Below, in pieces: positions 1,805 through 56,301 of a DNA stretch of 64,000 nucleotides. Position 1 is the first letter of the stretch. The number at the start of each line of letters is the position of its first letter. The DNA lies in the NCBI GenBank assembly GCA_948567375.1, contig OX419757.1, positions 48,109,665-48,173,664 on the forward strand, in the 5' to 3' direction. The notes under the pieces are model-generated. The model made no database searches, had not been told where the DNA came from, and saw only the letters and a list, made by a program, of their open reading frames with translations. The stretch is from Lunularia cruciata. Its lineage: Eukaryota; Streptophyta; Marchantiopsida; Lunulariales; Lunulariaceae. A program made the translations under genes and the position numbers.

Positions 1805-1859
1805 AACATCAAGTGTTATCGGTGTTGTTTGCTTTAGATATACATAGTCCCTAGATGAA

Positions 1860-5515: not shown

Positions 5516-7040
5516 TCATCCTCACACTCATCCCCTGGTGGTACAAAGGCTCCACTCCAAGCCTGTTGCACCAACTGATATGCATGCTGCTACAATGCCT
5601 CCTCTAAACTCCATGATAGAATATCTAAGGTGGATGGAACAATCCCATACTCCAAATCTGAGTGATCTCCTCTGGTACTAGAGTATCCTTTGCATGGGTG
5701 TTCCACTCCAATAAATCACCAGGCCAAGTAACTGCACAACTAAAAGCTAAAATTGATGTTGCCATGGTCCCAAACTATAGTGAGCCAAGATTGCCACTAC
5801 TGAAGCGTATTGGTAGGCAACATACCCACCCCTCACCAGACTGCCAACTTGGTCTATAGGAGGTTGTCTCCTCCCAATAGTCAATATTGAAACCCATGGG
5901 GTATAACACTACTCCCCCAACTAGCACATCATATGACTCAACTATTGTCACAATAGCTTGAGCTCTCACCACTAAGCTATGAGTTGGGTGACTAGGCTAA
6001 ACCTAGACAACAAGCTCCCCATGTGTGATGTATTGTGTCAAACCACCACCTAGAGATGTTTGGATCTGAAATGGACACCTCTCCACATGAGTCTTTTATA
6101 ACTCCAAACCGACTACTATAGCTTTCCCCAACATAAGGGGTTGTGCACCAGAGTATAACAAGGCTCTCTGTGGTGTATAGACCTTCCCTGAAGGTCCTAC
6201 CAAACAGAAAATCCCCCTCTAGTTATCCAATAGGACAACATCAGGTGTGAACCATGCTCTCTCAAAGGCCGGTCTAGCTGGCAACTCCTCCAGTCTAGCC
6301 AATACTACCTACCATAAACCACTAGTTGCTGAACCCAAGCTCCTCAACCAAGTCAGTTCCACTACCAACCACCTCTGCTCTAGTAGTAGGAACCGCATCA
6401 TCCCTACTCTCACAAAGCATGGAAGCCAACCGAAACACTAGGGCTAGGTCAACTCCCAATGTAAACATTTCATTGGTTGAAAACAAAGGGCACCACATAA
6501 TCAGCCGAGCCGCCCTCAACATCATGATATACTCAGTTTGTGTAGTAGCAGGTGGCTAACTAGTAGGTAGTCCATCATGCACTCCATCACCACCTACCAC
6601 ACCTGCATTGGGATGTTTAGGAGCCATAGATGTCATCTACAATGCCTCAAATTGCGTGAAAGACTAGGGAAGTCTGACCTATCTCCCAACCTCTCCTCTC
6701 TATGGGTCCAACTCCATTGATGCTCCTCTAGGCTCTGGAGCATGCACTACATTCCTAGTCACTATTGTAGATGCATCCACCTGAGTTGCTCCGCACATGA
6801 AGTCCAAAGCATCTCTATCACCAGTATATGAAGCCTCAGTACCCAAATCTGATCTCCTTTGAGCAATGGCCATACTAGCCAATCTTTGCTCCAACTGCTC
6901 AATCCAAGTAGCCATAGCTATATCAAAAGTAAGGGCAAGTATTGCACCTCTACTAGGTGTAGATCCTCTACTACCTTGTCCTCCATGATCCGGAGCTCCT
7001 CTACTACCTGCCATAGCAGCCCTACCACTCTGTAACTCCG
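5516..7040 (-). pseudogene. Protease and Gag-linker region of copy A
   Basis: Minus-strand matches to F: the SYDVLVGG and YPMGF..YWEETTSYRP segments at 5,775-5,972, the LVEELG and CESRDDAVPTTRAEVVGSG segment at 6,322-6,525, and the MAGSRGAP..GG start at 6,700-7,014 with a low-complexity Gly/Arg stretch. The segment between zinc knuckles and protease has no family I recognise. Several frame breaks are present. Confidence 0.65.
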
Positions 7041-8543
7041 AGTGTAGGTCAAAGCACCGATCACTAGTGTGACCAAATCTATGGCAATGCTCACACTGCC
7101 TTTGTGCTAGCTATGATGCACTCGAGGTGTCAGGTCCACTGCCTTGAGTACACTCTCTCCTATGCTGAGGTTCACCACAAGTCCAACCAACAACACTACC
7201 ACTCACTGGCTACTGCTGACCCAAAAATGAAAGTAAGGGTCTAACTATAGTAGGCTCCCCACTTGCTCCATAGGATTTGGGCTATCCATCCTATCCTCAA
7301 AAACCAACTGGCGTGGTGCACTACACTCTAGAAGAAGTCACAGTTGTGGACGAGGTCTCCCTACCAAATCTAAATGTCACCACTCTCTCCTCCACCATAT
7401 TGAGCTCAATATGCTCAGCCAAACCAAAGACCACTACCAAAGTGGGCAAAGTAGCGTGTAACAACGTAGCATCATGAACTCTACGTTGCAACTCCCTATC
7501 CAATATCCCATACCAAAATTGGACTGCTTGGACCTTAGTAACTCCCTAAGTGAAACTGATCAGCCGCCTCATGCAAGTGTATGCCTCGCTTAGGCTCTCT
7601 CCAGCCTTTTGCTGGAACTCTTGCAAGCTCCTCAGCTTGTTAGTCCATACTCCTTGGTAGTTTTGCCTCAAACACTGGAAGAACTCCACCATGGCATTAA
7701 ACCCCGGTACCACACCATCTCTTGTAGCGGTACCTCCACCCGTGGTAGCATTATCTCCAACTAGTGCACCTCCACTAGCTCCACCAACACTACTTGAGCT
7801 AGAACTCGTGAGACATCCAATCTACTCCTGGCAACCAAGCTTGAAGTGATAGAGACATAGTTTGGAGACCAATATTGTCTCCATAATTCAATCTCATCCA
7901 AATGAGCTCTCTTGAACTCATGGTAGTCATCCATTGGTGGACCTTCCAAGTGCTGAAACAACCCGTTCCATGCCATGAAGGGCATAAACAAAGTTGGGTT
8001 CTGCATCTGCTGTAGATCACACCAACTATCAAACTCCTAGATGAAGTCATCCAACTCAATGGTACCCACTATACCAAAGTAATGCTTAGGGCCTTTGGAG
8101 GCCCCATAAATCTTGTCCATGTCCCACAATAATAGTGCGGACATGCCAAGTGCACTCTCAACTGAATTAGCTCCTGTGTCAAACTCCAACTTAGAGTCAA
8201 TCTCCTCCCTCATTAGGACCTAAGATACAAGCTGATATTGAGCACCACTTCGAGTAAACCTAGTGCGTACTACATGGCTAACTTCTCTAGAATCCCCAAA
8301 GAACTCCGTCATGACAAAGTAACCACAATTGCAACCACAAACTGGAACCACCAAATTCAACCACAAACTGCAACCGCAAGTACCCCACCAAGTGCCAATG
8401 CCAACTAAGTGCCACCAAGTGCCAACACCAACCAAGCACCACCAAAGTGCCAAAACTAATAGAACACTACCCACTAATGTAACTCTAATTGAGACAACTA
8501 CACTAGGGGCAAGGGTGACCTGTAACTTGCCATCACAACACAT
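7041..8543 (-). pseudogene. Gag remnant of copy A
   Basis: Capsid-like text matching F: MQNPTLFMPFMAW and DDYHEF at 7,761-8,006, a segment ending FGRETSS at 7,321-7,503, and zinc-knuckle remains near 7,050-7,180. A stretch at about 8,388-8,455 is expanded relative to F by degenerate repeats of 'aagtgccaccaa'. Frames are disrupted throughout. Confidence 0.65.
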
Positions 8544-8900
8544 ATTCTCATGGTCTGCAAGTCATCACTTCCTACCTCACCGGAGAGAAACAAAGATAGT
8601 CTGATTGGTTATCACTCTAGCCTCACTACCAAGAGCACACTAGAGCACCAACACCCAAAATTCAGGGCACTTCACACAAATACAGTGCACAAACAAGAAC
8701 TAGAGAATGGAGGGGTCCAATCACAAGAATGCTTAACAGAAACCCTCCATCTCATAAATCAACATGGGACTGAGTTTGCCACCATTTGGCATTTGACATA
8801 ATTGGAGTACCTATCTTCTTCCTAAGCTACGAGGATCACCGGGGATTGGATCAATGTTCTTCTTGCCAAAATCTAACGTAACTCCTTCACAAAATTAATC

Positions 8901-21075: not shown

Positions 21076-21229
21076 AGTTCTAAGGAGGCATTGCCACAAT
21101 ATGCAAATCAAATGGTGTAGTAGGCTTGGAGTGAAGCTTTTATACCACTAGGTGACCAATGTGACGATGAGTCTCTAGAGTCTATTGCCTTGTTACCTTG
21201 GATACCACACTTATTACTTGGCAATATGC

Positions 21230-22220
21230 AACAAAGGGAGTATGCTTATTGGAGTTGTTTGGTGAGATTAGAATTGGACTAGTTGCAGTACTACAAGCAA
21301 GCATATGAGGTTAGAGGTACTTGTGCATAGAGAGATGAGACTATTAGGTAAGTCTCTTTACATTTTATGGCACACTTGGCTTATTGGTATCTTGATTTAT
21401 TACCAATGTCAACAATTAGGAGTTACCAAAAGCAAGCAAACACCTATACAAGCAAACATTTCCTTGTTGGGGGCATAAGATCTAGAGAAACATGGTCCCA
21501 TTTATTTGATGATTTTTGGATGACCATGTTAGAGATATATTTATCTTGGCTAAGATAGTGTTTATAGGATCTCCATTCTTGTGTCTTTAGGGAGATGTTA
21601 TATATACTATGACATCTTTCGGTTCATCAAGTTATTTTTCTAGTCTACATTTTGTAGAACGTCCCTTTGATGGGTGGTTCTTGCACACAAGTGGTGGCAA
21701 GTACACACAAGGTCTTTTCTTGGATAAAACCTATTGTGTTGGTGGATGCAACCAAAGTTGAATCATAGGCTCTTCATCTTCATGTTTGGTGGTTTAAACC
21801 TCTTACCTAGAAAGGTTTTACAATGTGCCTATGATGGGCTTCAATGGCTAGTTCATCTTACTTTTAATGATATTCTAGATATTGGGCATTAGTCTTTGAT
21901 AAAGGTTGTAATTGATATGCCACCAATGATAGTTGTGAACCTTGTTGGGCAGCTTAGAGCTTCTTTACCCACACTCATGAGTTTCCCAAGTTCACATGAT
22001 TTTTGAGAAGGAGATCTTGGGACTCATAGTTATAGTAGTTGGTGAAGCCCAATGCCATTGAGAGAGAGAAAGTGATGGGATTTCATACCGGTATTTATGT
22101 TATTTCAATAGTGTTAAAGGCATCCAAGTTTCAAGTATTAGGTAAAGCTACGGAGTTGAACCATTTGACCTAGATGACGAGCCTTGGATTGGTTGAGCAG
22201 TGTAGGATGTACTTGATAGG
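21230..22220 (+). pseudogene. DNMT remnant, copy C
   Basis: Motif I remains as LLELFGEIRIGL (about 21,247-21,282), followed by the ERDET segment near 21,330. Motif IV at 21,518-21,532 reads G-stop-P-C-stop; the Cys codon TGT (21,527-21,529) is kept. A motif X-like QGKATELN-type stretch is near 22,140. Together with copy A this shows that Cys, not the Tyr of F, is the ancestral residue at the catalytic site. Confidence 0.65.
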
Positions 22221-22554
22221 CACTATCAGTAGGGGGGAGGGAGGAGCAACGGACTAAGTGGGCATGGTATTCTTGGGACATAGCAAATAGCTACTAGTGA
22301 GCATGGTCTACCTAGGTTACACTCTTGGGCTACTTGGGATGTAGCTAGAGTACATGTGGAGCTCCTAGCTAAAGTAGAGGGAGTTCTTTGCCTTTAGGTT
22401 GGAGAATCTAGAGGTTAGGAGCATGACATTATTGCTCATGAGGCCCAATGTAGCAACTAGTCATAGTGTGTCCTCCACTCCTACATCAGTTAAAAGGATA
22501 CTTGGGAGCCAAACATTTTTTCTTTGGCTCCCAAGTATCATTGAACCCAAGCTT

Positions 22555-23045
22555 ATAGAGGAGAAAAATAGAGAGTTTGGAGGTTCTTGAGGAGCTACAA
22601 AAGTTATTTTGCCTTCAATATGAAATATTTAGATGCTCTAAAAGGACACAATATTTAGATTGAGTTTACTAGTGATACATCAAATTTTTTTATGTCCCTA
22701 CAGATATAAGGACATGGAGAGAGTGTTGATTTAGAGCTAGAGTAGAAATCTTTTTGAGGTTGGTTTGGTAGAGATTTCACATGGAGATATGCTTTAATTA
22801 CAATGATGCTAGCAAGAAGGATATGCATGGTAACTACACAAATAGGCAAATATGTGGAGATAATTGTCCTATCAACCAATAGATTAGGGTTGATTGGTAT
22901 GCTAAGCCTAGACATGAGGAGAAGTTTGATTTCATTGGGTATGCAAAGGTCTTTAGTACTTTGGATCTTCAAGCAAGACATAATCAATTGCCAATCAAAG
23001 AGGAAGACAAGTCCAAGATAACATTTTGGGTTATTGATTCTCACA
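22555..23045 (+). pseudogene. RT N-terminal remnant, copy C
   Basis: Matches to the segment before the RT of F and to its fingers region: 'ttgaggagctacaaaagttattttgcc', 'gtttggtagagatttcacatggag', 'ggatatgcatggtaactac', 'tttagtactttggatcttcaagca'. The match ends at a junction near 23,045, and the palm with YIDD and all of RNase H are absent. Confidence 0.6.
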
Positions 23046-23224
23046 AGATTCTCACGAGACATTGATGATGATATCTTAGTGATGGATTATCTTTGCAATG
23101 ATGTTGTGGGTGGGATAATTGGTGCCAAGGAGATAGACTGTATTCTTCAAGAAGCTGGATGGTTTAGATTGGATGGCACCTTCTTTATGAATGGGAGGAT
23201 GATAGAGTGCAAATAATACCATTT

Positions 23225-23895
23225 TTATCTTAGAGATCGCAGTTGGTACGTCATGCTCATGAGGAGCTAAGACATTTTGGAGTAAAATGCACATACACAT
23301 TACTCTAGTGTCATTATTGGTGGTGCAACATATAGACCAATGTACAATAGTTTGATGATAGATGTGTGGTTTTTGACCAAGTTAGAGCATCAATTAATGC
23401 TCCTATGGCATGGTCACACCCATTACCTATCATGGAGTTAGGTTACCACTGGAGTTTGGATTTTGTTGGACCTTTATCATTGATTGTGAGACTATAATAT
23501 GATGTGTTGGTTATGGTGGAGCACTTCTCCAAGTGGATTGAGTTGGTGGTACTTCTTGAAAAATCTAGTGAAGGGATAACTTACTTATTCTTAGTTCAAA
23601 TCCTTTAGTCATTTTGGTGCACGAATTGAGGTTTTGATTGATCAAGGTACAAAGTTCTTGGGAGACTTTTAGGTCTTGTTTGGCAAGGCCTTCATTGATT
23701 ACCACACTACCTCTTGAGATCACCTTGCAGCAGATGGCCTAGCAAAGAGAGTGGCTCAAACGATGAAGAGAAGATTGCATAAATATGGTTGGGAAAGAAG
23801 CCACTTGCAAGATTGGGATCTCCAATTATCTTGGTTGGCTATGGGCTATCAATTCAGCCGGCAAGCTTCCTTATCATTCTTCTCTCATTAATTTC
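23225..23895 (+). pseudogene. Integrase remnant, copy C
   Basis: Plus-strand equivalent of F 47,895-48,560, from the HAHEEL.HFG zinc-binding start (near 23,250) through LDFVGPL (near 23,460), the DQGTKFLG core (near 23,640) and the GL.KRVAQT-like helix (near 23,735, with Glu apparently changed) to the end of the core. Stops and substitutions are frequent. Confidence 0.65.
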
Positions 23896-24216
23896 TACTC
23901 TATGGACTAGATCTAGATTCTGCCTATAGCCATTCATCATAATGCTATTGTAGTTTTATGATGATCCAAACATATGGATAAGTGCATGTTCTCATCAAGA
24001 AGAGATCTTTTGGAGAATGATGCCAATAGCATTCGAGAACTTAATGATTGCTCAACATAAGATACTTTATGCTATGCTATTATTCAAGGAGGAGGTTATA
24101 GATCGTTGATCCATCAATTTATATGTATATCTACAACAAATTGCATTGATGATGCTTGATGTGACTACAGGTTGCACTATCTTGAGAGTGCATAAGTTTT
24201 TCCTTTCAAAGTCCTC

Positions 24217-24408
24217 ATGTTGGAAGGATGGGATGGTGTTTTTTGGAAAGATCATGTGCACAATTGTGCATCATGTCACCTTCCAAACATTGATTGCCCT
24301 AGGAATCCAAGCTTAGCAACTGTATATGCAAGCTTGCGGTGTATGTTATGTGGCTCTTTTGGTAGAGTTGCTACTATCTTGGTGTGTGATAGTTGTTCAA
24401 GTGGATGA
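24217..24408 (+). pseudogene. PHD-finger remnant, copy C
   Basis: The open stretch keeps NCASCHLPNID, then CMLCGSFG and CDSC; a stop replaces the next residues and the second half is unreadable. It confirms that the PHD module belongs to the element family and not to one insertion. Confidence 0.65.
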
Positions 24409-24636
24409 AAATGGTATGTTTTATTCCTATAGTCACAATGATTCTTCAATGTCAATGTCTATATATTTGAACTATAGCTAGTTCACTCTTTATGTGATAT
24501 AGATTGCAGACAAGCAAGTAATGATGGGACTCAATAGTACATAGTCTGTTGGTCTTTGCCCACCATATGCATATCATATAGTTGGAGTAGATGGCTATCT
24601 AGAGTTAGAGGGATTAACTACAAACTAAGGAGATGA

Positions 24637-25255
24637 TTGTGGTACTTTAGAGTTCATGTATGACTTATGTATGAGTTGTGCTTCTATAGTGTATAATGTT
24701 AACAACAATGTATGTTGTGTAATGATCTATATATGCATGAAAATTGTTTAGACATTTGTAGTGCCAAAGCTACAAACGTTGGAGTAATATCTTGGTGGTT
24801 AGAGTTACATTAGTTGTTGCTCAAAGATTACTTAGTGGCAGCCAGATTTTGTATTATGGCTATTGATCACAATGTTAGACTCACCATCACTTGCACCATT
24901 TGCATAGTCAAATGTGCAATCAACAATACCGTTAGGGTTGAAGATGTAGGTCGAGCAGAGGGGTATATCTTTGAAGTGCGATTCCAAGAAGCTCATTTCT
25001 TTGATGTTAGTTTTTGAGTTTCTAACTCTGTTGGTTAGCATCACTTAAAATCTTTAACTAGAGTTGGATATAGTTTTATTGTAATTAGTGTTTATTGTTA
25101 ATACATTATTAAGTTGTCTATTGAATTTTGATCCAAATTGAACCGTGATTTGAATATAAATTGAACTAATTATTATCATATTTTAGAATTCACGTATGAA
25201 TTCTGCTTCTATAAGGTATATTATAAATATATATAGTATGGATATTTACACCGAA
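24637..25255 (+). repeat. 3' LTR of copy C with flanking 106-bp units
   Basis: The first unit runs about 24,637-24,742 ('ttgtggtactttagagttcatgtatgac...'). LTR body follows from about 24,745, with 'caccatttgcatagtcaaatgtgcaatcaac' and 'gttggttagcatcactt'. A decayed second unit is at about 25,180-25,255 ('ttttagaattcacgtatgaattctgcttctataaggtata'). The arrangement is the same as in A, E and F. Confidence 0.65.
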
Positions 25256-41286: not shown

Positions 41287-44245
41287 TGTCATGGATATGT
41301 ACATTGCTACACAACATAAATTTTTATCAACATCACACACTAAAAAAGCACAACTTACACATAAGTCATACATGGACTCTAAAGTACCACAATTAATCAG
41401 TTCATTCACACAACTTGAATCACACTCAATCAGATCAATACTTGATTTGCTGCTCAATAATCTGTCAACAATTATGCACTAAATACAGTCGAGCCACATC
41501 CATTCTAGCTAAGAGACTCTAGGTGACGCTCACCGGCTTTCTATCTACTCCAGTCAAGAACTCAAAGGCTCAACAAGAAGAAGTGAGCTCTTTGTAGTTA
41601 CACTTCCAAGGTATACTCTTGATTTTGACCTAGGTCTCACCCTAATGGTCCCATTGATGGCACACCCAATGGTGCAAATGGTGCAAGTGCTGATGAGCCC
41701 CACCATGTAGTTAATATCCCAAACACAAAATCTGACAATTGGAAAGTAGTCTATGAGTAATTGCCAAAATATCTCTCACTACTATCACTGCTTCTCTAGT
41801 GTCCAAGCAATCTAGATGTGATGCTACAAATGGTGTGACAATTATCATGCATATATACATTGCTACACAATAGACATTACTATCAACATCACACACTATA
41901 AAAGCACAACTCACACATAAGTCATTATATGGACTCTAAAGTACCATAATTGCCCCCCTAGATGGCAATTAGGTCCCTCTAACTCCAAATAGCCATCTAC
42001 TCCAAGTAAATGGTATACCTAATATTGGGAAAATTATCAAGAGGCTGGGTGCTAACGAGCCTCATTGTTAGTCTCCTATTTGCAATCTATACCATATAAA
42101 AGATGAACTGATTATAGGTCAGGTACATCTAGGACATAACCACTATCCTTGAGGAACCACCGTGAGAGGAGGAGTCATACATGCCGTATGCCATCCTCTC
42201 AAATAGCTAATCACACACTAACATAATAATAACTCCACCAAAAGAGCCACATAACATACACCTCAAGCCTGCTTGTACAAGTGCCAAGCTTGCATCCATT
42301 GAACCATCAATGTTTGGGAGGTGGTATGACACACAATTACACACATGATCCTTTCAAACAAAACCATCATGTCCTTCCAACACAAGGACTCTAGATGGCA
42401 AAACCTCACGCACTCTCAAGATAGTACGGCCTATAAAAACATCAAGTGTAGTCAATGCTGCCTGTTATAGATATACATAGTCACCTCGATGAAATCAATG
42501 GATTAAGGGGCTATAACCCCCTCCTCAAATGGTAGCGTAATGTAAGGTATCCCTATGCTGAGCAATTGCCAAGTTCTTAAAGGCTATTGGCATCACTCTC
42601 CAAAATATCTATGCCCGTTGAAAACATGCGCTCATCCATACATTTGGATCATCCAAGTCCAACACTATGGTAGCATCTCGATGAATGGCTATAGATAAAT
42701 CTAGATCTCGTCCATAGAGTAGAAAGTTAGGGGAGAAGGATAATAAGGAGACTTGCTGGTTGAACCGATAGCCCATGGCCAACCAAGGTAACTAGAGATC
42801 CTAATCTCCCAAGTGGCCTCTTTGCAAACCATACTTTTGTTGTACTCTCTTCATTTTTTGAACCACTCTCTCTGCTAAGCCATCTGCCTCAGGTTGATCT
42901 TGAGAGGTAGTACAATATCAATCAAAGTCTTGTCACACAAGACCTGAAACTCCTCCAAGAACTTTGTACCCTGATCAGTCAAAACCTCAACTGGTGCACC
43001 AAAATGATCGAGAACTGGAATGGATAAGCCGTCCCTTCATTGGACTTGTCAAGAAGTACCACCAACTCAATCTACTTGGAGAAGTGCTCCACCATCACCA
43101 AAACATACCATTGATGTCTCATAGTCAACGACAAGGGTCTAGCAAAGTCCAAACTCCAACAATAATCCAATCCCATGATAGGTAATGGGTGTAATTCTGG
43201 CATAGGAGCATTAAATGATGCTCTAACTCAATCACAAACCACACATCTTGCAACAAACTATTGTACATTGGTCTATATACCACGCCACCAATAATGACTC
43301 AAGAGTAAGCTATATGTACGCTTTACCCCAAAATCTCCTAGCTCCTCATGAGCACAATGGACCAACTATGGTCTTTGAGATAGAAGTGGTACTACTCTCC
43401 CTACCATCCTCCCATACTTGCAAAAGGTGTTTTCCTCCAATCTAAATTGCCTAGCTTGCTGAAGGGCACAATCTCTCTCCTTGGCCCCAACTGTGCTACC
43501 CACAACACCGGTGCAAAGATAGTCCATCACTAAGACATCATATCATGAATATCTTGCTGAATTGTACTACTATCTCCACTCTTTGGATCTAAGACCTCAA
43601 TAGCTCTTCTTGTATGCGTTGAGAGAGATACCACCAAAGCCTCAAAAAATATATAGAGGAAGGTAGATGCATGCCAACTTGGCACCATCTCCTCATCTGT
43701 CTCACCATGCCAATGTGCTCCGGTCTGATCCTATTGGCTGGGACAAGGATTTCTACTCAACCCATCTGCATCATGATTCACCACTCCAAGTCTATGAATA
43801 ACCGTGAAATCATACTTTTGTAAAATCAAAGCCCATCATGCAAGCTTCCTTGAAAGCTTGTCGGACTCTATTAACCACTTCAGTGGCTGATGATTAGTGA
43901 TAAGAGTAAAAGGGTTACCAAATAGGTACCAAAAAAAATGTGCTACTGCCCATATTGCTGCCAAGCACTCTCCCTCATATGAACTACACTTTGCCTCAGC
44001 TGAATTGTTGGAGCAACTAGCATAGGCTACCACAAACTCCTTCCCCTCATCATCATGTTGGGTGAGCATTGCTCCATGCCCCAACATACTACAATCAATG
44101 TGAACCTAAAATGGTCATCCTCTGATCTATCTCCTCAAAATAGGAGCAAATGTTGACCTCTCCTTGAGCTCTTTTAAAGCTCTTGCCTACTCATCTCCCC
44201 AACACCACTCTTATGTCAGCTTTGTTAGCTTTTTCAAGGCCTTGC
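41287..44245 (-). mobile_element. DP element copy E (3' part)
   Basis: Minus-strand 3' LTR (41,287-41,840) with the 106-bp unit at its outer end (41,287-41,392) and again inside it (about 41,843-41,949). PHD remnant follows near 42,170-42,300, integrase at about 42,700-43,400, and RNase H (open stretch 43,836-44,087, with AYAS, ECLAAIWA and TNHQPLKWL, where Asn replaces the catalytic Asp of TDH). RT text stops at about 44,245 at the start of element G. No intact protein. Confidence 0.75.
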
Positions 44246-46477: not shown

Positions 46478-47032
46478 TGTCGTGCGTATATACATTGCTA
46501 CACAACATACATTGCTGTCAACATCATACACTATAGAAGCACAACTCACACATAAGTCATACATAGACTCTAAAGTGCCACAATAATCAGATTGCTTAAC
46601 ACTCTCAACTCAACTCAACTCAGATCAGTACTTGATCTGTCACTCTATAAACTGCAAACAACTGGGCACTGATTACAATCAAGCCACACCCACTCAAGCA
46701 TAGAGAATCCAGGTGACGCTCGCCGGCCTCTGTCCACCATAGCCAAGAACTCGAAGGCTCAACATCAGAGAAGTGAGCTCTCTAAAGCTCACTTTGAAAC
46801 TATACTCCCTGGACTTGAGCTAGCACTGAAACCCTAACGGTCCCGTTGACGGTACACTTGATGGTGCGAACAATGCAAAGTGACAGTGGGCCCCACCGTG
46901 AAGTCAGTACCCCAAACACAAAATCTAACCGTTGGAAAGTAGTCTCTGAGAATTTGCTAGAATAACTCTAACTACTATCACTGGAACTCCAGTGTCCGAG
47001 CATCTAGATGCGGAACTACAAATGGCGTGACA
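46478..47032 (-). repeat. 3' LTR of copy F, with extra 106-bp outer unit
   Basis: Plus-strand 46,584-47,032 matches the 5' LTR with about 26 differences in about 446 positions by eye, 24 of them transitions. The outer 46,478-46,583 has no equivalent in the 5' LTR and instead repeats 47,035-47,140 (4 differences in 106). The purine run GGGGGGC lies just inside the second unit (minus strand, about 47,143-47,149). Confidence 0.85.
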
Positions 47033-47308
47033 ATTGTCATGCGTATATACATTGCTACACAACATACATCGCTGTCAACATCATACACTATAGAAGCACA
47101 ACTCACACATAAGTCATACACGGACTCTAAAGTGCCACAATCGCCCCCCTAGCTGGCGGTTAGGTCCCTCTAACTCTAGATAGCCATCTACTCTAAGTAT
47201 ATGGTATACCCTCTAATGGGCAAAGATCAAGAGGCCGGGTGCTATGGAGCCCCATCGTTAGTCGCCTGTTTGCAATCTATACCATGTAAAGAATGAACTA
47301 GCTATTGG

Positions 47309-47596
47309 TCAAGTACATCTAAGACATAACCACTGTCCCTGAGGAACCACTATGAGGGGAGGAGTCATACATGCCATATGCCATCCTCTCGAACAACTAT
47401 CACACACTAACATAGTAGCAGCTCCACCAGAAGAGCCACATAACATACACCTCAAGCCTGCACGTACAAGTGCCAAAATTGGGTCCATAATACCATCAAT
47501 GTTTGGAAGGTGGCATGGCGCACAATTGCGCACATGATCCTTCCAAACAACACCATCACGTCCTTCTAACAAGGACTCCAGATGGCAAAACCTCAC
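47309..47596 (-). pseudogene. PHD finger at the C-terminus of copy F polyprotein
   Basis: The pattern is complete: C-x2-C (CMLC), 11 residues, C-x2-C (CDSC), 4 residues, H-x2-C (HMAC), 14 residues, C-x2-C (CLRC), with the usual GWH, PPL, VP and WLC. An additional NCAPCH lies upstream. It follows the integrase C-terminal text (FHPGDYVYL, ILRVREVLPSG). A 2-base loss relative to copy A near 47,571 shifts the frame between the two, and CGA-to-TGA type stops lie before it. PHD fingers commonly bind the histone H3 tail; a targeting role in integration is inference. Confidence 0.85.
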
Positions 47597-47699
47597 GCAC
47601 TCTCAAGATAGTGCGGCCTGTAGAAACATCAAGTGTCATCGGTGCTATTTGCTGTAGATATACATAGTCACCTGGATGAAATCAACGGATCAAGGGTCT

Positions 47700-48560
47700 A
47701 TAACCTCCTCCTCGAATGGTAGCATAGCGTAAAGTATCTCTATGCTGAGCAATCGCCAAGTTCTCAAAGGCCACCGACATCACTCTCCAAAAGATCTCTG
47801 CCCGCTGAGAACATGCGCTCATCCATACATTGGGGTCATCCAAGTCTAAAACTACAATAGCATCTCGACGAATGGCCGTAGGTAAATCTGGATCTCATCC
47901 ATAGAGTAGAAAGTATGGAGAGAAGGATGCTAAGGAGGCTTGCCGGCTGAACCAATAGCCCATGGCCAACCAAGGTAATTGGAGATCCCAATCTCCCAAG
48001 TGGTCTCTCTGCAAACCATACTTTTGCAATCCTCTCTTCACCGTTTGAACCACTCTCTCTGCTAAGCCATCTGCCTTAGGGTGATCTTGGGATGTAGTAC
48101 GATGATCAATTAAAGCCTTGTCACACAAGACCTGAAACTTCCCCAAGAACTCTGTACCCTGATCAGTCAAAACCTCAGCTGGTGCACCAAAATGACTAAG
48201 AACTCGATCTAGGAACAAGTAAGCTGTCCCTTCACTAGACTTGTCAAAAAGTGCCACCAGCTCAATCCACTTGGAGAAGTGCTCCACCATCACCAAAACA
48301 TATCGATGATGTCTCACAGTCAGCGGTAAAGGTCCGGCAAAGTCCAAACTCCAACGGTAACCCAATCCCATGATAGGTAATGGGTGTAACTGTGGTGTAG
48401 GAGCATTGAATGATGCTCTAACTTGGTCACAAACCATACATCTGGCAACAAACTGCTGTACCTCGGTCTGCATACCGCACCACCAATAATGACTCTGGAG
48501 TAAGCTATATGTACGCTTTACTCCAAAATGTCCTAGCTCCTCATGAGCATGACGGACCAA
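47700..48560 (-). pseudogene. Integrase of copy F
   Basis: An open 221-codon stretch (47,895-48,560) holds the HHCC zinc domain (HEELGHFG ... CMVC) and the whole DDE core: D in LDFAGP, D in TDQGTEF, E in GLAERVVQT. A TGA follows YG at the end of the core, with readable text continuing to FHPGDYVYLQQ. Integrase joins the cDNA ends to chromosomal DNA. Catalytic residues are present but the polyprotein is interrupted on both sides. Confidence 0.85.
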
Positions 48561-48969
48561 CTATGGTCTTTGAGATGGAAGTGGTACTACTCGCACTCTA
48601 CCATCCTCCCATACACGCAAAAGGTGTCTACCCTCCAATCTGAACCGTTTGGCTTGCTAAAGAACACGGTCTCTCTCCTTGGCCCCAACTGTGCCACCCA
48701 CAACACCAGTGCGAAGATAGTCCATCACTAAGACATCATCATGAATGTCTCACTGAACTGCACCAATATCTTCACTCTCTGGATCTGTGACCTCAATAAC
48801 TCCTCCTGTATGCGCTGAGAGAGATACCACCAAAGCCTTTGCAAATATACATAGAAAGGCCGATGCATGCCAACCTAGCACCATCTCCTCATCTCTCTCA
48901 TCATGCCAACGTGCTCCGGTCTGATCTTGCTGGCTGGGACATAGGTTTCTACTCAACCCATCTGTATCA

Positions 48970-49345
48970 TGGTTCACCACTCCAGGTCTGTGAACAACCA
49001 TGAAATCATACTCCTGTAAAATCAGAGCCCATCATGCAAGCTTCCCTGAAAGCTTGTCGGACTCCATCAACCACTTCAGCGGCTGATGATCAGTGATGAG
49101 AGTGAAGGGGTTACCAAATAGGTAACATCGGAAATGTGCTACTGCCCAAACTGCTGCCCAGCACTCTGCCTCATATGAACTACTTTGCCTCTGCTGAATT
49201 GATGGAGCGACTAGCATAGGCCACCACAAACTCCTTCTCCTCATCATCATGCTAGGTGAGCACCGCTCCAAGCCCCAACATACTCCAATCAGTGTGAACC
49301 TGAAATGGTCGTCCTTTGATCGGTCTCCTCAAAATAGGAGCAGAT
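48970..49345 (-). pseudogene. RNase H of copy F
   Basis: TDWSMLGLGAVL (first catalytic Asp), VVAYASRS, AECWAAVWAVAHFRCYLFG (catalytic Glu) and LITDHQPLKWL (Asp) are readable. A short indel near 49,186 shifts the frame and stops are present. It degrades RNA in RNA-DNA hybrids during reverse transcription. Confidence 0.8.
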
Positions 49346-49349
49346 GTCA

Positions 49350-50340
49350 ACCTCTCCTTGAGCTCTACAAAAGCTCTCTCCTGCTCATCTCCCCAACACC
49401 ACTCCTGTGTAAGCTTGGTCAGCTTTGTCAAGGCCTTGGCAATGGCACTAAATCCTCTAACATAGCGGCGATAGAAGTTTGCCAACCCAAGGAATGCTCG
49501 CACTCTACTCACATCCATAGGCCAAGGAATACGTGCAATAGCCTCTACCTTGGTCAACTGAACACCAAGTCCTCTGGGGTAGATAGTGTGACCCAAATAC
49601 TCATCCTACTCGTGGAAGAACCTACACTTCCCAGGATGTAGTTTGAAGCCATGAGATCTCAACCTCTCAAACACCTCCAACAATTGTCTCTCATGCTTCT
49701 CCACAGTAGTGCTATAAACCAAAATGTCATCAATATAGCACCGAGCAAAATCCAATCCAGCTAGGATCCTATCCATGACCCTCTGGAATTCAGCAGGAGC
49801 GTTCTTCAACCCAAATGGTAAGAACCTCCACTGATATAACACATCCTTGCCATGAGGATCAATAGCCCAGAATGTTGTCTTGGACTTATCCTCTTCCCTG
49901 ATCAGCAACTGATGATATCCCGCTCAAAGATCCAAAGTACTAAAGACCTTTGCATGCCCAATCGCATCAAAAATCTCCTCCAGTGTAGGCATGGCATACC
50001 GATCAGCCCTGGTCTGTCGGTTGATAGGACGGTAATCTCCACACATCCGCCTATCTGTATAATTGCCATGCATATCCTTCTTGGCTGGCATCACTGTCGC
50101 TGATGCATACTCTCCATGTGAAATCTCCACCAAACCAGCCTCAAAAAGGTCACTACTCCGGCTCTGAATCAATGTCCTCTCCATCTCACTATATCAATAA
50201 GGACGTCGGAAAAGTGGTGTGTTGCTAGTCAGCTCAATCTGTATACCAGGTCCTTTCAAAGCACCCAAATCCTTCATACTGAAGGCAAAACAACTTGTGT
50301 GACTCCTCAAGAACCTCCAAACCCTCCGTCTCTCCTCTCC
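49350..50340 (-). pseudogene. Reverse transcriptase of copy F
   Basis: From the thumb-side text upward on the minus strand: FLGLANFYRRYV (near 49,470-49,510), CYIDDILVYS (catalytic YIDD, near 49,715-49,745), LPFGLKNAPAEFQRVMD, and the fingers region CGDYRPINRQTRADRYAMP. Motif A, STLDL, is followed by a stop where Gln/Ser is usual. The QRV and NAPAEFQ phrases are standard Ty3/gypsy. Only a few stops break one frame. Confidence 0.85.
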
Positions 50341-50719
50341 AGTAAGCTTGGGTCCAAGATCTGGCTCCCAAGTATCCTTTGTAACTGTAGTAGGAGTGGA
50401 AGACGTATTGACTGACTGCTATACTGGGCCCTTGGGAGCAATAGTGTCATGCTCCCGACCACTAGAGGTCCCAACCTCTGTGTGAAAAACTCCCTCCACT
50501 CTGGCTGCAAGCTCCACACGTCCTCTGGTTGCATCCCATGTGGACCAAGGGTGTAATCCAAGTAGTCCACGCTCACTTGGATGGACTCCAATTAGATCAC
50601 TCTCCCTAGTAGCTACTGGATGTGTCCCAAGAATACCATGTCCACTCGGTCCATCGCCCCTAGCATGTGCCTTAATCGTCTTGATAGGCATAGGGCTCAC
50701 AAGTGTCCAAGTGGTGATG
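50341..50719 (-). other. Spacer between DNMT and RT of copy F
   Basis: Polyprotein text with no recognised domain: a His/Gly/Ser-rich stretch (HPVATRESDLIGVHPSERG) and then REHDTIAPKGPV. The same stretch exists in A (4,131-4,480) and C. It is probably a linker. Confidence 0.5.
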
Positions 50720-51753
50720 CCTATCAAGCGCATCCTATGCTGCTCTGCCAAGCCAAGGCTCACAATCCAGGTCAAACAATTAAGGTCCATAGCCTGTCCT
50801 AACACCTAACGCCTGGATGCTTCTAACACTACTGGAACAATGGTAATACAGGTGCAAAAACCCGTCGCATGCTCTCTCTCATCAGCATTGGGCTCCACCA
50901 ACTGCTGTAACTGTGAGTCCTAAACAAGTCCAGGTCCTCCCTCTTGAAAAGCATGAGAGCTTTGGAAACTCATGAGTGTGGGAAATGTGGCTCTAGGCTG
51001 TCCAACTAGGTTCACCATTGCCATAGGTGACCTATCAGCCACTACCACTGTCTGAGATTGACGCCCAACATCCAAGATATCATCAACAAGAATGTGGTTC
51101 AGTCGCTGAATCCCATCATAAGCACGTTGTAGAACCTCTTTGGGTAAGAGGTTCGTCTACCAAAGACAAAGACGATGAGCCCGTGATCCCACTCTGGCTG
51201 CATCTAATAATAGAGCAGGTCCCATCCAAGAATGGACCTGATGTGTACTCGCCACCACTCTGGTGCGAGAATCACCCTACAAAGGAACGTTCTCCAGAAG
51301 GTAAGCTGGAGAAACAGACTGATGAACCTGGAGATGTTGTAGTATCCGTAACATCTCCCAAAACACACCAGAACAAGGATCCTGAAGACCCAAACCGTGG
51401 CCCGCACAAATATGTCCCTGATATGGCCATCCAAAAATCACCAAGTGAATAGGCCCATGTCTCTCTAGGTCATGCGCCCCCAGTAAGGAAATGTCTCCTG
51501 GTAGGGCCTTCTGGTAACCTCTAACTACTGACATCGGTAATAACTCCGGATACCGATAGGCCAAGTGTGCCACATGATGTAGAGAGACTTGCCTAGCAGT
51601 CTCATCTCTCTCTACATATAAGTACCTCTGTACTCGTATACCCGCCTGTAACACTATAGCTAGTCCGGTGCTCATCCCACCAAACAACTCCAATAGGCAT
51701 ATCCCCTCTACTGGATACTGCCAAGCAATGAGTGTGGTATCCAGAGGCGTCAA
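50720..51753 (-). pseudogene. Cytosine-5 DNA methyltransferase domain of copy F
   Basis: One frame with only nonsense mutations contains: motif I LLELFGGMSTGLA (about 51,660-51,700), YVERDETARQV (motif II/III region), motif IV GPIHLVIFGWP followed by Y at 51,421-51,423 where the catalytic Cys belongs, QGHICAGHGLGLQDP, FWEMLRIL, motif VI LLENVP, motif VIII-like LDAARVGSRAHR, a PTLMSFQSSHAF segment and motif X-like LGQAMDLNCLTW (near 50,760-50,800). The motif order is unpermuted, unlike plant DRM enzymes. The enzyme class transfers methyl from S-adenosylmethionine to cytosine C5. It is a module of the polyprotein between protease and RT. With Tyr for Cys and about four stops this copy is inactive. 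Confidence 0.85.
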
Positions 51754-52430
51754 AGCAATTGCCTTTGGAGGCTCATCCTCACACTCATTTCTTCATGGTA
51801 CGAAGGCTCCACTCCAAGCCTACTGCACCAACTGATCTGCATGCTACTGCAATGCCTCCTCTGAACTCCACAATGGAATATCCAAGGTGGATGGAACAAT
51901 CCCACTCGTACTCCAAAGTCGAGTGATCTCCTCTGGTACCAGAGTATCCTCTACATGGGCGTTCCCCTCCAACAAGTTACCAGGCCAAGTAATTGCTCCA
52001 CTAAAAGCTAAAACTGATGTTGCCATGGTCTCGGACTGTAGTGAGCCAAGACTCCCACGACTGAAGCGTACTGGTAGGTGACATACCCGTCCGTCACCAG
52101 ACTGCCAACCAGGTCTATAAGAGGTTGTCTCCTCCCAATAGTCAATGCTGAAACCCATGGGGTATAACACTGCCTCCAACTAGCACATCATATGACTCAG
52201 CTATCGTCGCAATAGCCTAAACTCTCACCACCGAGCTATCAGTCGGATGACCAGGCTAAACCTGGACAACAAGCTCCCCACGTGTGATGTACTGTGTCAA
52301 ACCACCACCTAGAGATGTCTGGATCTGAAATGGACACCTCTCCACATCGGTCCTCCGGAACTCCAGACCAACAACTATAGCCTTCCCCAACATAAGGGGC
52401 TACACGCCAGAGTCTAACAAGACTCTTTGT
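51754..52430 (-). pseudogene. Retropepsin-like protease region of copy F
   Basis: In one frame: VYTPQRVLLDSGV (active-site Asp-Ser-Gly at about 52,405-52,425), then a stop, PLMLGKA, FQIQTSLGGGLTQY, and SYDVLVGG with YPMGFSIDYWEETTSYRPGWQSGDGR. A small loss relative to copy A near 52,441 shifts the frame just before the active site. The protease would cleave the Gag-Pol polyprotein. The stretch 51,760-52,080 before the DNMT has no known domain. Confidence 0.75.
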
Positions 52431-53305
52431 GGTGTATAGACCTAAAGGTCCCACCAAACAAAAAATCCCCCTCTGGTTATCCAATAGGACAACATCAGGT
52501 GTAAACCACGCTCTCTCAAAGGCCAGTCTAGTTGACAACTCCTCCAGTCTAGCCGCTGCTGCCTGCCATAAACCCTTGGTCGCTGAACGGATCCCATGCT
52601 CCTCAACCAAGTCAGCTCCACTACCAACCACCTCTACTCTAGTAGTAGGAACTACACCATCCCTACTCTCACACAACGTGGCAACCAACCGGAATATTGG
52701 GGTTGGGTCAACTCCCAATGTAAACATATCACTGGCCAAAAACAAAGGATGCCGCATAATCAGCTGAGCCGTCTCCAACATCATGCTAGACTCTGTCTCT
52801 ATAGTAGCACGTGGCTGACTAGCAGGTAGTCCATCATGTTCTCCATCACCACCTACCACACCTACACTGGGACGTCTAGGAACCATGGATGTCGTCTGCA
52901 ATGCCTCAGATAGCATGAAAGATTGGGGAAGTCTGACTTGTCTCCCAACCTCTCCTCTCTGTGGGTCCAACTCCACTGATGCTCCTCTAGGCTCTGGAGC
53001 ACGTACTGCACTCCTAGTCACTATTGCAAATGCATCCACCTGTGCTGCTCTGCACATGAAGTCCAAAGCATCTCTATCACCAGCATATGAGGTGGAAGCC
53101 TCAGCACCTGAATCTGATCTCCTCTGAGCAATAGCCATACTAGCCAATCTTTGCTCCAATTGCTCAATCCGAGTAGCCATAGCTGTGTCAGAAGTAAGGG
53201 CAGGTACTGCACCCCTACTAGGTGTAGATCCTCTACCACCACCTCTACCACCTCGTCCTCCATGAACTGGAGCCCCTCTACTACCTGCCATAGCAGCCCT
53301 ACCAC
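52431..53305 (-). pseudogene. Linker region between zinc knuckles and protease, copy F
   Basis: A long open stretch begins MAGSRGAPVHGG with Gly/Arg-rich repeats, then a coil-like IEQLEQRLASMAIAQRR, then SESSMMLETAQLIMRHPLF. I do not recognise a domain. The same text occurs in A and B, so it is a constant part of the polyprotein. The open frame runs past the true frame at its end because of the shift near 52,441. Confidence 0.6.
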
Positions 53306-53330
53306 TCCGTAACTCCGGGTGTAGGTCAAA

Positions 53331-53465
53331 ACACCGGTCACTAGTGTGACCAAATCTGTGGCAATGCTCACATTGCCTCTATGCTGGCTGTGATGCACCA
53401 GAGGTATCAGGTCCGCTGCCCTGAGTACACTGTCTCCTATGGTGAGGTCCACCACAAGTCCAACA
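53331..53465 (-). pseudogene. Two Gag zinc knuckles of copy F
   Basis: CWTCGGPHHRRQC and, 25 residues on, CEHCHRFGHTSDRC, the second an exact C-x2-C-x4-H-x4-C. A TAG lies between them. These bind genomic RNA. They are in a different frame from the capsid part, so at least one frameshift lies at about 53,480-53,600. Confidence 0.8.
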
Positions 53466-53499
53466 AGCAACACCACCACTCACTGGCTACTGCTGACTC

Positions 53500-54628
53500 A
53501 AAAATGAGGGCAAGGGCCTCCACTCGCTCCATAGGATCTGGGCTGTCCACCCTATCCTTGAAAACCAACTGGGCGTGGTGCACTCTGCTGCACTCTAGAA
53601 GAAGTCACAGCCGTGGATTAGGTCTCCCTACCAAATCCAGATGTCACCACTTTCTCCTCCACCATATTGAGCTCAATACGCTCAGCCAAACCAAAGACTA
53701 TTGCCAAAGTGGGCAAAGTAGCCTGCAACAACGTAGCATCACAAACTCTACGTCGTAACTCCCTATCCAGTATCCCATACCAAAACTGGACTGCTTGGGC
53801 CTCAGTAACTCCGTGAGTGAAACTGATCAGCCGCCTCATGCGAGTGTATGCCTTGCATAGGCTCTCCCCAACCTTCCGTTGGAACTCCTGCAAGCTCCTC
53901 AACTTGTCAGTCCGCACTCCCTGGTAGTTCTGCCTCAAATATAGGAAGAACTCCACCATGGGGTTAAACCCCGGTACCACACCACCTCCTGCAGCGGTAC
54001 CTCCACTCGTAGTAGCACTATCTCCAGCTAGTGCACCTCCACTAGCTCCACCAACACTACTCAAGCTAGAACTCGTAGGTACAGCCGATCTACTCCTGGC
54101 CACCAAGCCTAAAGTGATAGAGACATAGTGTGGAGACCAATACTGTCTCCATAACTCAATCTCCTCTAAATGAGCTCTCTGGAACTCATGGTAGTCATCC
54201 ATCGGCGGACCCTCCAGATGCTGGAACAACCCCTTCCATGCCATGAAGGGTGTGAACAAAGTCGGGTTCCGCATCTGCTACAGATCACACTAATTGTTGA
54301 ACTCTTGGATGAAGTCATCCAACTCAATGGTACCCACTATACCAAAGTAACGCTTAGGGCCTTTGGAAGCCCTATAAATCTTGTCCATGTCCCACAACAA
54401 CGGTGCGGACACACCAAGTGCACTCTCAATTGAATCAGCTCTTGTGTCAAACTCCAACTCAAAGTCAATCTCCTCCCTCACTAGGACCTGAGATATAGGC
54501 TGATACCGAGCACCATTTTGAGTAAACCCACTACATACTACAGGGCTAACTCCTCTGGAATCTCCAAAGAACTCTGTCGTGACAAAGTAACTACAACAGC
54601 AAACCCGAACCACCAATTGCAACCGCAA
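53500..54628 (-). pseudogene. Gag capsid region of copy F
   Basis: Open stretches 54,290-54,628 and 53,618-54,274 are in one frame, separated by two TAG codons. Text includes DMDKIYRASKGPKRYFG, TPFMAWKGLFQHLEGPPMDDYHEF, and the retrotransposon-gag phrase RMRRLISFTHGV..AQAVQFWYGILDREL. A Gly/Ser/Thr-rich insertion lies between. Gag forms the virus-like particle. Confidence 0.8.
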
Positions 54629-54639
54629 GTTGCAACCGC

Positions 54640-55850
54640 AAGTGCGCCACCAAGTGCCAACACCGACTAAGCACCACCCACTAATGTAACTCTAACCGAG
54701 ATAACTACACTAGGGGAAAGGGCAACCTGTAACCTGCCATCATAACACGCACTCTCACAATCTGCAGGTCATCACTTCCTGCCTCACCGGAGAGAAACAA
54801 AGGTAGTCTGACTGGTCATCACTCCAGCCTCACCATCGAGAGCACACCAAAGCACCAACGCTCAAAAGTCAGGGCACCTCACACAAACGTGGTGCACAAA
54901 TAGGAAGCAGAGAATGGAGGGGATCCAATCACAAGAAATCTAAACAAAAACCTTCCATCTCATAACACAACACGGGACTGACTCTGCCACCATTTGGCAT
55001 TTGACATAAGAGCAGTTTGTATCTAAGTCCTAAGTTACAAGGATCACCAAGAATGGGATCAAACTGCCTCTCGTAGCCAAAGCTACATGTGTATAGATAA
55101 TAGTGGCAAAGTCACTGGGACAACAAGTGAGGGTGGACCAGTTTGCTAGGGCACCAGTCTAGGAACAAGAGATCTAGGGGTCAAACCCTGTTGTGCACAA
55201 TCTAGCAGGAAAGGTAGATTTTGCCAACCAATGACCAAGATCTACTCTAAACTAGCTAGCCTCACGCTAGCAAGCTAGCTTGCTGGCCTTTCAAGCCCTT
55301 CGTAGCCTCTCATAGCCCACAGCCCTATGCCTCAAAGCGCCAAAATTCAGCCAAATGAGGCCTTTCTTGTTACCACTTTGAACCTCCTCCAAAATTGGCA
55401 AAACTTCTCCAAATCTGCGAAAGTCCTCCAAACAAGCAAAACTCCTCCAAATCTGGCCAAATAGCAAAAAATCCTCCAATTCTGGCCAAAATCTGACATA
55501 AATCCCAACCAAAATCTGACGAAAAATCTGACATAAACCCTAAAGATGGTTGTCCGCCAAATCCCCTACTTACTTTCCACTCGAGCCAAATTGACAAAAC
55601 AGGTTTTTCCAAATCACAATTTCATGAGAAGAGCTTCCAAACTCCACCTTCAATTTAACTTTCTGAGCCGAACTCGCAGCAAATTGGTCCTGCCTCCACC
55701 TCCTGAGCTCAAAATCATCAACTGAACGAGCTTCTGCACACTAGGGAAACACTGAACTTGAATTGAGCTACCAACGATCCACCGAGCTTGGAGATAGCAC
55801 CAACACTCACAGTTCTTGCACCCAATTTCCCCCTGACCTCACTTCTCTGA
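54640..55850 (-). other. Untranslated leader of copy F
   Basis: About 1.2 kb between the 5' LTR and gag, matching Z (1-658) and D (38.85-40.2 kb). The short open frames at 55,291-55,612 are built from the 'ttggaggatttt'-like repetitive text and are not conserved. A tRNA-like segment lies on the opposite strand at 55,131-55,198. Directly inside the LTR (minus strand) 'catcagag' vaguely recalls the initiator-Met primer site, but too weakly to call. Confidence 0.6.
55131..55198 (+). other. tRNA-like segment antisense to the DP leader
   Basis: On the plus strand: an A-box-like 'tggaccagtttgctagggc', an anticodon-arm-like 'ccagtctaggaacaagag', and a B-box-like 'ggggtcaaaccct'. The same segment, more decayed, lies on the minus strand of D (39,533-39,593). 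Both are antisense to their element. The acceptor stem is not convincing, so this is a tRNA-derived relic and not a functional gene. Confidence 0.4.
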
Positions 55851-56301
55851 TGTAATCAGATTGCTTAACACTCTCAACTCAACTCAACTCAGATCAGTAC
55901 TTGATCTATCACTCTGTAAACTGCCAACAATTGGGCACTGATTACAGTCAAGCCACACCTACTCAAGCATAGAGAATCCAGGTGACGCTTGCCGGCCTTT
56001 GTCCACCATAGCCAGGAACTCGAAGGCTCAACATCAGAGAAGTGAGCTCTCTAGAGCTCACTTCAAAACTATACCCCCTGGACTTGAGCTAGCACTGAAA
56101 CCCTAACGGTCCCGCTGACGGTACACTTGACGGTGCAAACGGTGCAAAGTGACGGTGGGCCCCACCGTGAAGTCAGTACCCCAAACACAAAATCTAACCG
56201 TCGGAAAGTAGTCTCTGAGAAATTGCTAGAATAACTCTAATTACTATCACTAGAACTCTAATGTCCGAGCATTTAGATGCGGAACTACAAATGGCGTGAC
56301 A
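55851..56301 (-). repeat. 5' LTR of copy F
   Basis: A 451-bp segment beginning TGTAATCAG and ending GCGTGACA on the plus strand, that is TG...CA in both orientations. It matches 46,584-47,032 and lacks the extra 106-bp unit seen at the other end. Its outer end abuts the TTGG duplication. Confidence 0.85.

What the first reader, a model, noticed from the sequence alone, without database searches (positions are those of the whole stretch)
50720..51753. Ty3/gypsy retrotransposon family carrying its own cytosine-5 DNA methyltransferase
Copy F has DNMT motifs I, IV, VI, VIII and X in one frame with flanking protease and RT text, and copies A (4,483-5,515) and C (21,230-22,220) show the same arrangement, so the module is a heritable part of the family. 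Retrotransposon-borne DNMTs have been reported in some eukaryotes (dinoflagellates and charophyte algae, from memory), but a land-plant-like case combined with a PHD reader would be a notable selfish epigenetic system. It could methylate its own cDNA or chromosomal copies. Function is inference.
Basis: partly seen in the sequence, partly recalled or inferred. Interest (0 to 1): 0.92.

Follow-up and report, generated by a model that had tools for sequence, protein, structure and literature searches.

The report
Plant retrotransposon carrying a DNA methyltransferase
A very abundant jumping gene in a plant genome carries its own DNA-methylating enzyme and a chromatin-reading finger, in a layout suggesting that the enzyme is made in bulk together with the element's coat protein.

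Summary
Copy F (46,478-56,301, minus strand, CCAA target duplication) is a Ty3/gypsy-type element with a DNMT3-like cytosine-5 methyltransferase domain at 50,740-51,705, between protease-like text and reverse transcriptase; copies A and C agree. F's own enzyme is dead (stops; Tyr for the catalytic Cys), but open genome copies pass the Pfam cut-off, and a DNMT tag occurs at 3,121 places in the 566-Mb genome (control 0). New here: ORF1 (gag-PR-DNMT) ends in an in-frame UAG, in 28 of 28 genome copies read, followed by CARYYA (plant-virus type I readthrough context) in 25; ORF2 is RT-RH-IN-PHD. A contig 50% different in the DNMT keeps this layout. Repeats run A-internal-B-A-B (DIRS-like), yet ends are TGTC...GACA with 4-bp duplications (14 of 15 copies, plus F) and a DDE integrase. 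Relatives occur in liverworts, Sphagnum and Closterium. The nearest published case is KnitGypsy-Dnmt3 of the alga Klebsormidium; ten searches of the open library gave me no land-plant report. That it methylates its own cDNA or new insertions is inference (about 50%). Verdict: new variant of a known kind, with land-plant spread and unusual expression layout.

The parts
46478..56301 (-). copy F: complete element, A1-internal-B1-AT-A2-B2, flanked by CCAA on both sides
55853..56301 (-). A1 repeat (449 bp), begins TGTC
52491..54664 (-). gag-like and CCHC-knuckle part of ORF1 (no Pfam match; placed by position and by eye)
52078..52490 (-). protease-like part of ORF1 (LLDSGA motif in L018; no Pfam match in this family, weak in relatives)
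50740..51705 (-). DNMT3-like cytosine-5 methyltransferase domain, decayed in this copy
50419..50421 (-). in-frame TAG between ORF1 and ORF2, followed by CAGTCA (fits CARYYA)
49319..50178 (-). reverse transcriptase
48945..49311 (-). RNase H
47898..48562 (-). integrase, H2C2 plus rve (DDE) core
47456..47896 (-). conserved part between integrase core and PHD
47312..47455 (-). C-terminal PHD finger, open in copy F
46478..47141 (-). B1 (47,035-47,141), AT, A2 (46,584-47,032), B2 (46,478-46,584), ends GACA
659..8854 (-). copy A, 5' end missing; DNMT at 4,487-5,444, PHD at 1,490-1,633
21076..25020 (+). copy C, partial and diverged; DNMT at 21,236-22,200; TAG-CAACTA junction after 22,420
41287..44244 (-). 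3' part of another copy, with the same B-A-B end, without the DNMT region

Best explanation
A recently active, very abundant family of Ty3/gypsy-type retrotransposons, in a plant whose nearest named relatives for this element are liverworts, that has long carried a DNMT3-like de novo cytosine-5 methyltransferase. SHOWN from sequence (about 97% sure): the DNMT is the C-terminal domain of ORF1, after gag- and protease-like parts; ORF2 (RT-RH-IN-PHD) follows in the same frame after UAG-CARYYA; the inserted unit is A-internal-B-A-B with TGTC...GACA ends and 4-bp target duplications. INFERRED: most ribosomes stop at the UAG, so the methyltransferase is made at Gag level and goes into the virus-like particle, while occasional readthrough gives less RT and integrase (about 75%). 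The enzyme methylates the element's double-stranded cDNA, or the copy just after insertion, so that it resembles host chromatin rather than foreign DNA (about 50%). The PHD finger at the end of the integrase protein reads a histone mark and helps choose or hold the insertion site (about 50%).
For: DNMT identity. Inside the element: 20 of 20 fetched DNMT hits, 3,121 tagged places. UAG in 28 of 28 distinct genome copies and in F, A, C; CARYYA in 25 of 28 and in F and C; UAG-CAA-UCA in L030, 50% identical in the DNMT; type I motif in PMC5382211 (passages). Ends and target duplications. Constraint: DNMT 70-73% identical to P0004, P0137, P0138, P0139 against 38-50% in the linker before it; pN 0.34, pS 0.72 against L030. 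Conserved PHD. A DIRS element's DNMT3 methylated CG in yeast (PMC5890265, passage).
Against: No expression, readthrough or methylation data. In the same yeast assay the Klebsormidium Gypsy DNMT gave no methylation, called inconclusive by its authors. Within the family the evidence for constraint on the DNMT is weak: shared variants 16 N to 12 S, singletons 75 to 23, p=0.056, weaker than for RT, p=0.006. Copies carry CG and CHG decay, as ordinary host silencing gives, so the enzyme does not keep copies unsilenced. In a related clade the DNMT lies between RNase H and integrase, so Gag-level expression is not general. The Closterium protein and some Marchantia models run from DNMT into RT.
Confidence: 0.5

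Rival explanations
1. Self-restraint: the enzyme methylates chromosomal copies so that new insertions are silenced quickly, which limits harm to the host and so keeps the element in the population.
For: Copies bear CG and CHG transition excess (0.309 and 0.271 singleton transitions per site against 0.016 at A/T). The 2018 authors list slowed retrotransposition as one option (PMC5890265 Discussion).
Against: The CHG signature points to host enzymes; over 3,000 tagged places and A1/A2 differences down to 0.2% do not look restrained.
Confidence: 0.2
2. The domain now acts mainly on RNA or as a nucleic-acid-binding part of the particle (for example on the genomic RNA or the primer), not as a DNA methylase.
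For: It sits at the end of the Gag-protease ORF; the relative P0183 has DNMT-like text that Pfam does not call a methylase; the Klebsormidium enzyme gave no methylation in yeast.
Against: The catalytic Cys and the ENV Glu are invariant in the 24 aligned relatives; the profile is nearest DNMT3, far ahead of DNMT2 (3.7e-20 vs 6e-5).
Confidence: 0.15
3. Passenger: a captured gene that spreads with the element and is hardly selected.
For: Weak constraint within the family (p=0.056).
Against: Kept in liverworts, Sphagnum, Closterium and metagenome elements with catalytic residues invariant, while the flanking linker and tail diverged.
Confidence: 0.1
4. Chimera, host pseudogene or assembly artefact.
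For: Copy F is decayed and under the Pfam cut-off.
Against: 20 of 20 fetched DNMT hits lie inside the element, within units bounded by target duplications; ORF1 is one open frame of 1,428 aa in L015 and L026; an independent contig has the same layout.
Confidence: 0.01

Closest known systems
KnitGypsy-Dnmt3 of Klebsormidium nitens (de Mendoza et al. 2018, PMC5890265; outline and abstract, passages and the Discussion seen)
   Same: Gypsy-type coding region with a canonical-order Dnmt3-type DNMT; the Fig. 4 legend says the repeats are arranged as in DIRS while the domains are Gypsy; DNMT under purifying selection there.
   Different: There the DNMT is said to lie in the Pol polyprotein ORF; here it ends the Gag-protease ORF before a conserved UAG. 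No PHD is mentioned in that main text (0 hits). K. nitens is an alga, said to have fewer copies than Symbiodinium; here there are over 3,000 tagged places. Its sequence was not at hand, so kinship is untested.
SymbioDIRS-Dnmt3 and SymbioLINE-Dnmt (same paper)
   Same: Retroelements with a DNMT in their coding region; the DIRS ones have A-coding-B-A-B repeats.
   Different: Tyrosine recombinase or LINE machinery; here a DDE integrase and target duplications.
Type I stop readthrough of tobamoviruses, UAG-CARYYA (PMC5382211, passages)
   Same: Same bases after the UAG, in front of the polymerase.
   Different: A retroelement; readthrough not measured.
Chromoviruses (Ty3/gypsy with a chromodomain after the integrase; survey PMC6317226, passages)
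   Same: Chromatin-reader module at the C-terminus of the integrase protein.
   Different: A PHD finger, and no chromodomain match.

Membership tests
Ty3/gypsy LTR retrotransposon | Pol order RT-RNase H-integrase (rve) | tested here: met
   L018 ORF2: RVT_1 121-279, RNase H 370-471, H2C2 616-669, rve 688-781
Ty3/gypsy LTR retrotransposon | target-site duplication of 4-5 bp | tested here: met
   4 bp in 14 of 15 copies with both ends seen, and in F; 4 or 5 bp is the plant norm in PMC6317226
Ty3/gypsy LTR retrotransposon | two identical direct LTRs | tested here: not met
   Repeats are A-internal-B-A-B, so it is filed here as Ty3/gypsy-type by its proteins only
KnitGypsy-Dnmt3 | Gypsy coding region, Dnmt3-type DNMT and DIRS-like repeats | tested here: met
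KnitGypsy-Dnmt3 | DNMT in the Pol ORF | tested here: not met
   DNMT is in ORF1, UAG before RT
KnitGypsy-Dnmt3 | sequence kinship | not testable with these tools
   no K. nitens sequence was obtained
DIRS | tyrosine recombinase, no target duplication | tested here: not met
   rve integrase and 4-bp duplications; that DIRS lack duplications is recalled
C5 DNA methyltransferase (PF00145) | HMM match above the cut-off | tested here: met
   L018 31.6 and L015 31.2 bits vs 22; 10 of 10 relatives; copy F 15.8, not met
DNMT3 family | nearest to DNMT3 by profile, motifs in canonical order | tested here: met
DNMT3 family | groups with host DNMT3 in a tree | tested here: inconclusive
   39 retroelement rows stand apart from DNMT3A, own DNMT3 and own DRM (100/99), only 3 host rows, long branches
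DRM | rearranged motif order | tested here: not met
   order I to X in F
Type I stop readthrough | UAG-CARYYA | tested here: met
   25 of 28 genome copies, F, C, L030
Type I stop readthrough | measured readthrough | not testable with these tools
   needs a reporter assay
Chromovirus | chromodomain after integrase | tested here: not met
   only a PHD finger found there

The most novel reading that the evidence does not exclude
An old streptophyte lineage of Ty3/gypsy-type elements carries an epigenetic writer-reader pair: a DNA methyltransferase made in bulk with Gag before a leaky UAG, and a PHD finger on the integrase protein. With them the element marks its own cDNA and picks chromatin, so that each new copy brings its own epigenetic state; with thousands of copies in one plant it may be a real source of that plant's de novo methylation.
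Probability: 0.25. Interest if true: 0.92.

Novelty: new variant of a known kind. Interest (0 to 1): 0.76.

Why it matters
Retroelements with their own DNA methyltransferase were described from a charophyte alga and dinoflagellates. Here the same idea is a major component of a plant genome, with relatives in Marchantia polymorpha (gene models P0137, P0139 and others), a laboratory plant. That makes an open question testable: why does a target of DNA methylation bring its own methyltransferase? The conserved UAG-CARYYA predicts a protein ratio that can be measured, and A-internal-B-A-B repeats with a DDE integrase and target duplications are a replication layout without an accepted explanation known to me.

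Tried and rejected
Rejected: host-gene artefact; DRM identity; DIRS membership. A DNMT-less subfamily: the PHD tag has 4,640 places against 3,121 for the DNMT tag, so I read six PHD-tag places without an exact DNMT-tag partner in the listed rows: 4 of 6 are (near) full length with the DNMT, 1 has a deletion reaching into the DNMT start, 1 is a 3' fragment without it. Six is few, so a minor DNMT-less subfamily is not excluded. RNA structure after the stop: none (z 0.65). L029 from viral contigs is a methylase in a phage-like contig, not this family (by eye). No primer-binding site was identified. The host is not identified; Blasia pusilla (377-390 Mb) does not fit. One versus two captures of the DNMT cannot be decided with three host rows. 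In one search I put P0176 in the wrong layout group; no RT precedes its DNMT. The group of 17 rows was made by exclusion; Pfam coordinates exist for three of them, motif positions for others.

Literature: ten searches, of listings; passages of eleven papers: PMC5890265 (also outline, abstract, Discussion), PMC12344493, PMC9033089, PMC5382211, PMC13182070, PMC6317226, PMC6338049, PMC6453930, PMC10952607, PMC8226279, PMC11244446. None of what I saw reports a DNMT-bearing retroelement in a land plant. Preprints and most subscription papers are not in that library, and no whole paper was read.

Full report
WHAT IS THERE. Copy F is a complete element on the minus strand, 46,478-56,301, flanked on both sides by CCAA. 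In element sense it reads A1 (449 bp), internal region, B1 (107 bp), AT, A2, B2. Open genome copies show the order gag-like region, two CCHC knuckles, LLDSGA protease-like region, methyltransferase, then after an in-frame UAG reverse transcriptase, RNase H, integrase, a conserved stretch and a PHD finger at the very end. Gag, knuckles and protease are by eye: Pfam finds only PF00145 in ORF1, though relatives P0050, P0051, P0003 match protease families upstream of the DNMT, P0050 above the cut-off.

IS IT A METHYLTRANSFERASE. Copy F is decayed (5 stops in 462 codons; Tyr for the catalytic Cys) and scores 15.8 bits against a cut-off of 22. Its open N-terminal piece still finds DNMT3A/B/C (29 of 31 PDB hits at E<=1, best 0.00099); the C-terminal piece of copy A alone finds nothing. 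Open copies L018 and L015 pass the cut-off, as do 10 of 10 relatives tested. A 12-row profile ranks DNMT3A first (3.7e-20), then DNMT3C and 3B, plant enzymes including DRM2 (1.2e-11 to 1.4e-8), M.HhaI (about 3e-6) and DNMT2 (6e-5). In 24 aligned relatives the Cys-Gln of motif IV, the Glu-Asn of motif VI and an Arg and His of motif VIII are invariant.

IS IT PART OF THE FAMILY. In the window's genome (566 Mb, 74 contigs, unnamed) a protein search scored 111 of 13,362 candidates; all 111 span at least 365 of 368 residues of P0002 at 72-74% identity, and 10 of 111 lie in stop-free frames of 1,428 aa or more (best-scoring rows only). A 28-base DNMT tag (<=2 mismatches) occurs 3,121 times, its reversed control 0 times. 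If all were full length that is about 30 Mb, 5% of the genome (inference). I fetched 20 copies from the PF00145 list, favouring long open frames; all 20 align to copy F across the DNMT and RT regions. These were found by their DNMT, so they show where it sits, not how often it is kept. The less biased sample is six PHD-tag places: 4 near full length with DNMT, 1 with a deletion into it, 1 a 3' fragment.

THE STOP. Every distinct genome copy read at the junction has UAG: 20 of 20 plus L005, L007, L008, L031, L032, L034, L035, L036 (L006 is the same place as L009), so 28 of 28; F, A and C as well. The next six bases fit CARYYA in 25 of 28; L031 and L034 have TAG for CAG and L011 has CTT. F reads CAGTCA, C CAACTA, A TAGCCA. 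L030 is a contig filed under a cyanobacterial genome but plainly a eukaryotic element; its DNMT is 50% identical, its ORF1 ends UAG-CAA-UCA and a 1,047-aa RT-RH-IN-PHD frame follows. This is the type I readthrough context of tobamoviruses (PMC5382211, passages); no RNA structure is predicted after it. Several relatives' proteins also end just past the DNMT (P0004, P0137, P0138, P0148, P0150), but I did not see their DNA; the Closterium protein P0180 and Marchantia P0142 run from DNMT into RT, perhaps through modelled introns, which I could not check.

ENDS AND AGE. Of 15 fetched copies with both outer ends in view, 14 have a 4-bp target duplication (L028 does not), and F has one. A1/A2 differences in 15 measurable copies are 0.2-3.0% in 14 and 10% in L028; F has 5.8%. 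The sample favours young copies. B1-AT-A2 reads GACA-AT-TGTC, a palindrome like a two-LTR circle junction; I infer, without proof, a circular intermediate cut there.

SELECTION. Among 20 copies, singleton variants in the DNMT are 75 nonsynonymous to 23 synonymous (1.39 of expectation) and variants shared by three or more copies 16 to 12 (0.57), Fisher p=0.056; RT 51 to 34 and 5 to 15 (0.59, 0.13), p=0.006; ten regions together p=7e-7. Variants in exactly two copies, stops, and codons readable in under 12 copies were left out of these ratios. Constraint on the DNMT inside the family is thus suggestive only. Over longer spans it is clearer: 70-73% identity to P0004, P0137, P0138 and P0139 against 38-50% in the linker before it and 26-31% in the tail where alignable, and pN 0.34 vs pS 0.72 against L030, with synonymous sites near saturation.

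MUTATION SIGNATURE. Singleton transitions per site: CG 0.309, CHG 0.271, CHH 0.061, A/T 0.016. The copies have been methylated in CG and CHG, as under ordinary host silencing; this does not show who wrote the marks, and no DNMT-less family was measured as control.

RELATIVES. Named: Marchantia polymorpha, M. paleacea, Riccia sorocarpa, Calypogeia fissa, four Sphagnum species, Closterium sp. NIES-53. Two layouts exist: PR-DNMT before RT (this family, liverworts, Closterium) and RT-RH-DNMT-IN-PHD (unnamed metagenome proteins; coordinates for P0160, P0173, P0179). PHD is C-terminal to the integrase in both, and in Marchantia P0132. The RT tree separates the layouts (100/99); in the DNMT tree the 19 PR-DNMT rows hold together only weakly (93/52) and all 39 retroelement rows stand apart from three host rows (100/99; long branches flagged). 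One capture followed by a move, or two captures, cannot be told apart. Host genes: L001 is DNMT3-like (DNMT3A 2e-14); L004 (DNMT3-like), L002 (DRM-like, rearranged order) and L003 (CMT-like) are by eye.

COMPARISON AND VERDICT. It works like KnitGypsy-Dnmt3 and shares its odd repeat layout, but its DNMT is not in the Pol frame and sequence kinship could not be tested, so I do not file it as that element. It is a new variant of a known kind: a high-copy form, with land-plant relatives and a PHD finger, whose methyltransferase precedes a conserved readthrough-type stop. Identity and layout are near certain; function, methylation of its own cDNA or fresh insertions, is inference.

Noticed in passing
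window 60,304-63,849 (-): An unrelated Ty3/gypsy element with one 1,182-aa stop-to-stop frame (protease, RT, RNase H, integrase) and no DNMT match: a natural control family for methylation comparisons.
   Followed up: partly
window 46,478-47,141; 659-1,319; 41,287-41,950: B-A-B repeat ends with the palindrome GACAATTGTC between B and A, in an element with a DDE integrase; replication route unexplained.
   Followed up: partly
window about 55,845-55,860 (-): The end of A1 and the next bases form the inverted repeat TCTGAT-TAC-ATCAGA; no tRNA primer site was identified, so self-priming is conceivable.
   Followed up: no
L030 (CADCWO010000201.1); P0060: Eukaryotic retroelement DNA filed under bacterial metagenome-assembled genomes (cyanobacterium, Obscuribacterales): likely contamination.
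   Followed up: partly
P0183: A diverged relative with DNMT-like text before RT that Pfam does not call a methylase: perhaps a degenerate methyltransferase kept in an open polyprotein.
   Followed up: no
L001, L004, L002, L003 (own genome): Host set: two DNMT3-like genes, one intronless-looking DRM-like frame and a CMT-like exon; only L001 was searched.
   Followed up: partly
window 13,504; 18,155; 38,035: A three-copy 174-nt direct repeat, 74-86% identical, not part of the element.
   Followed up: no
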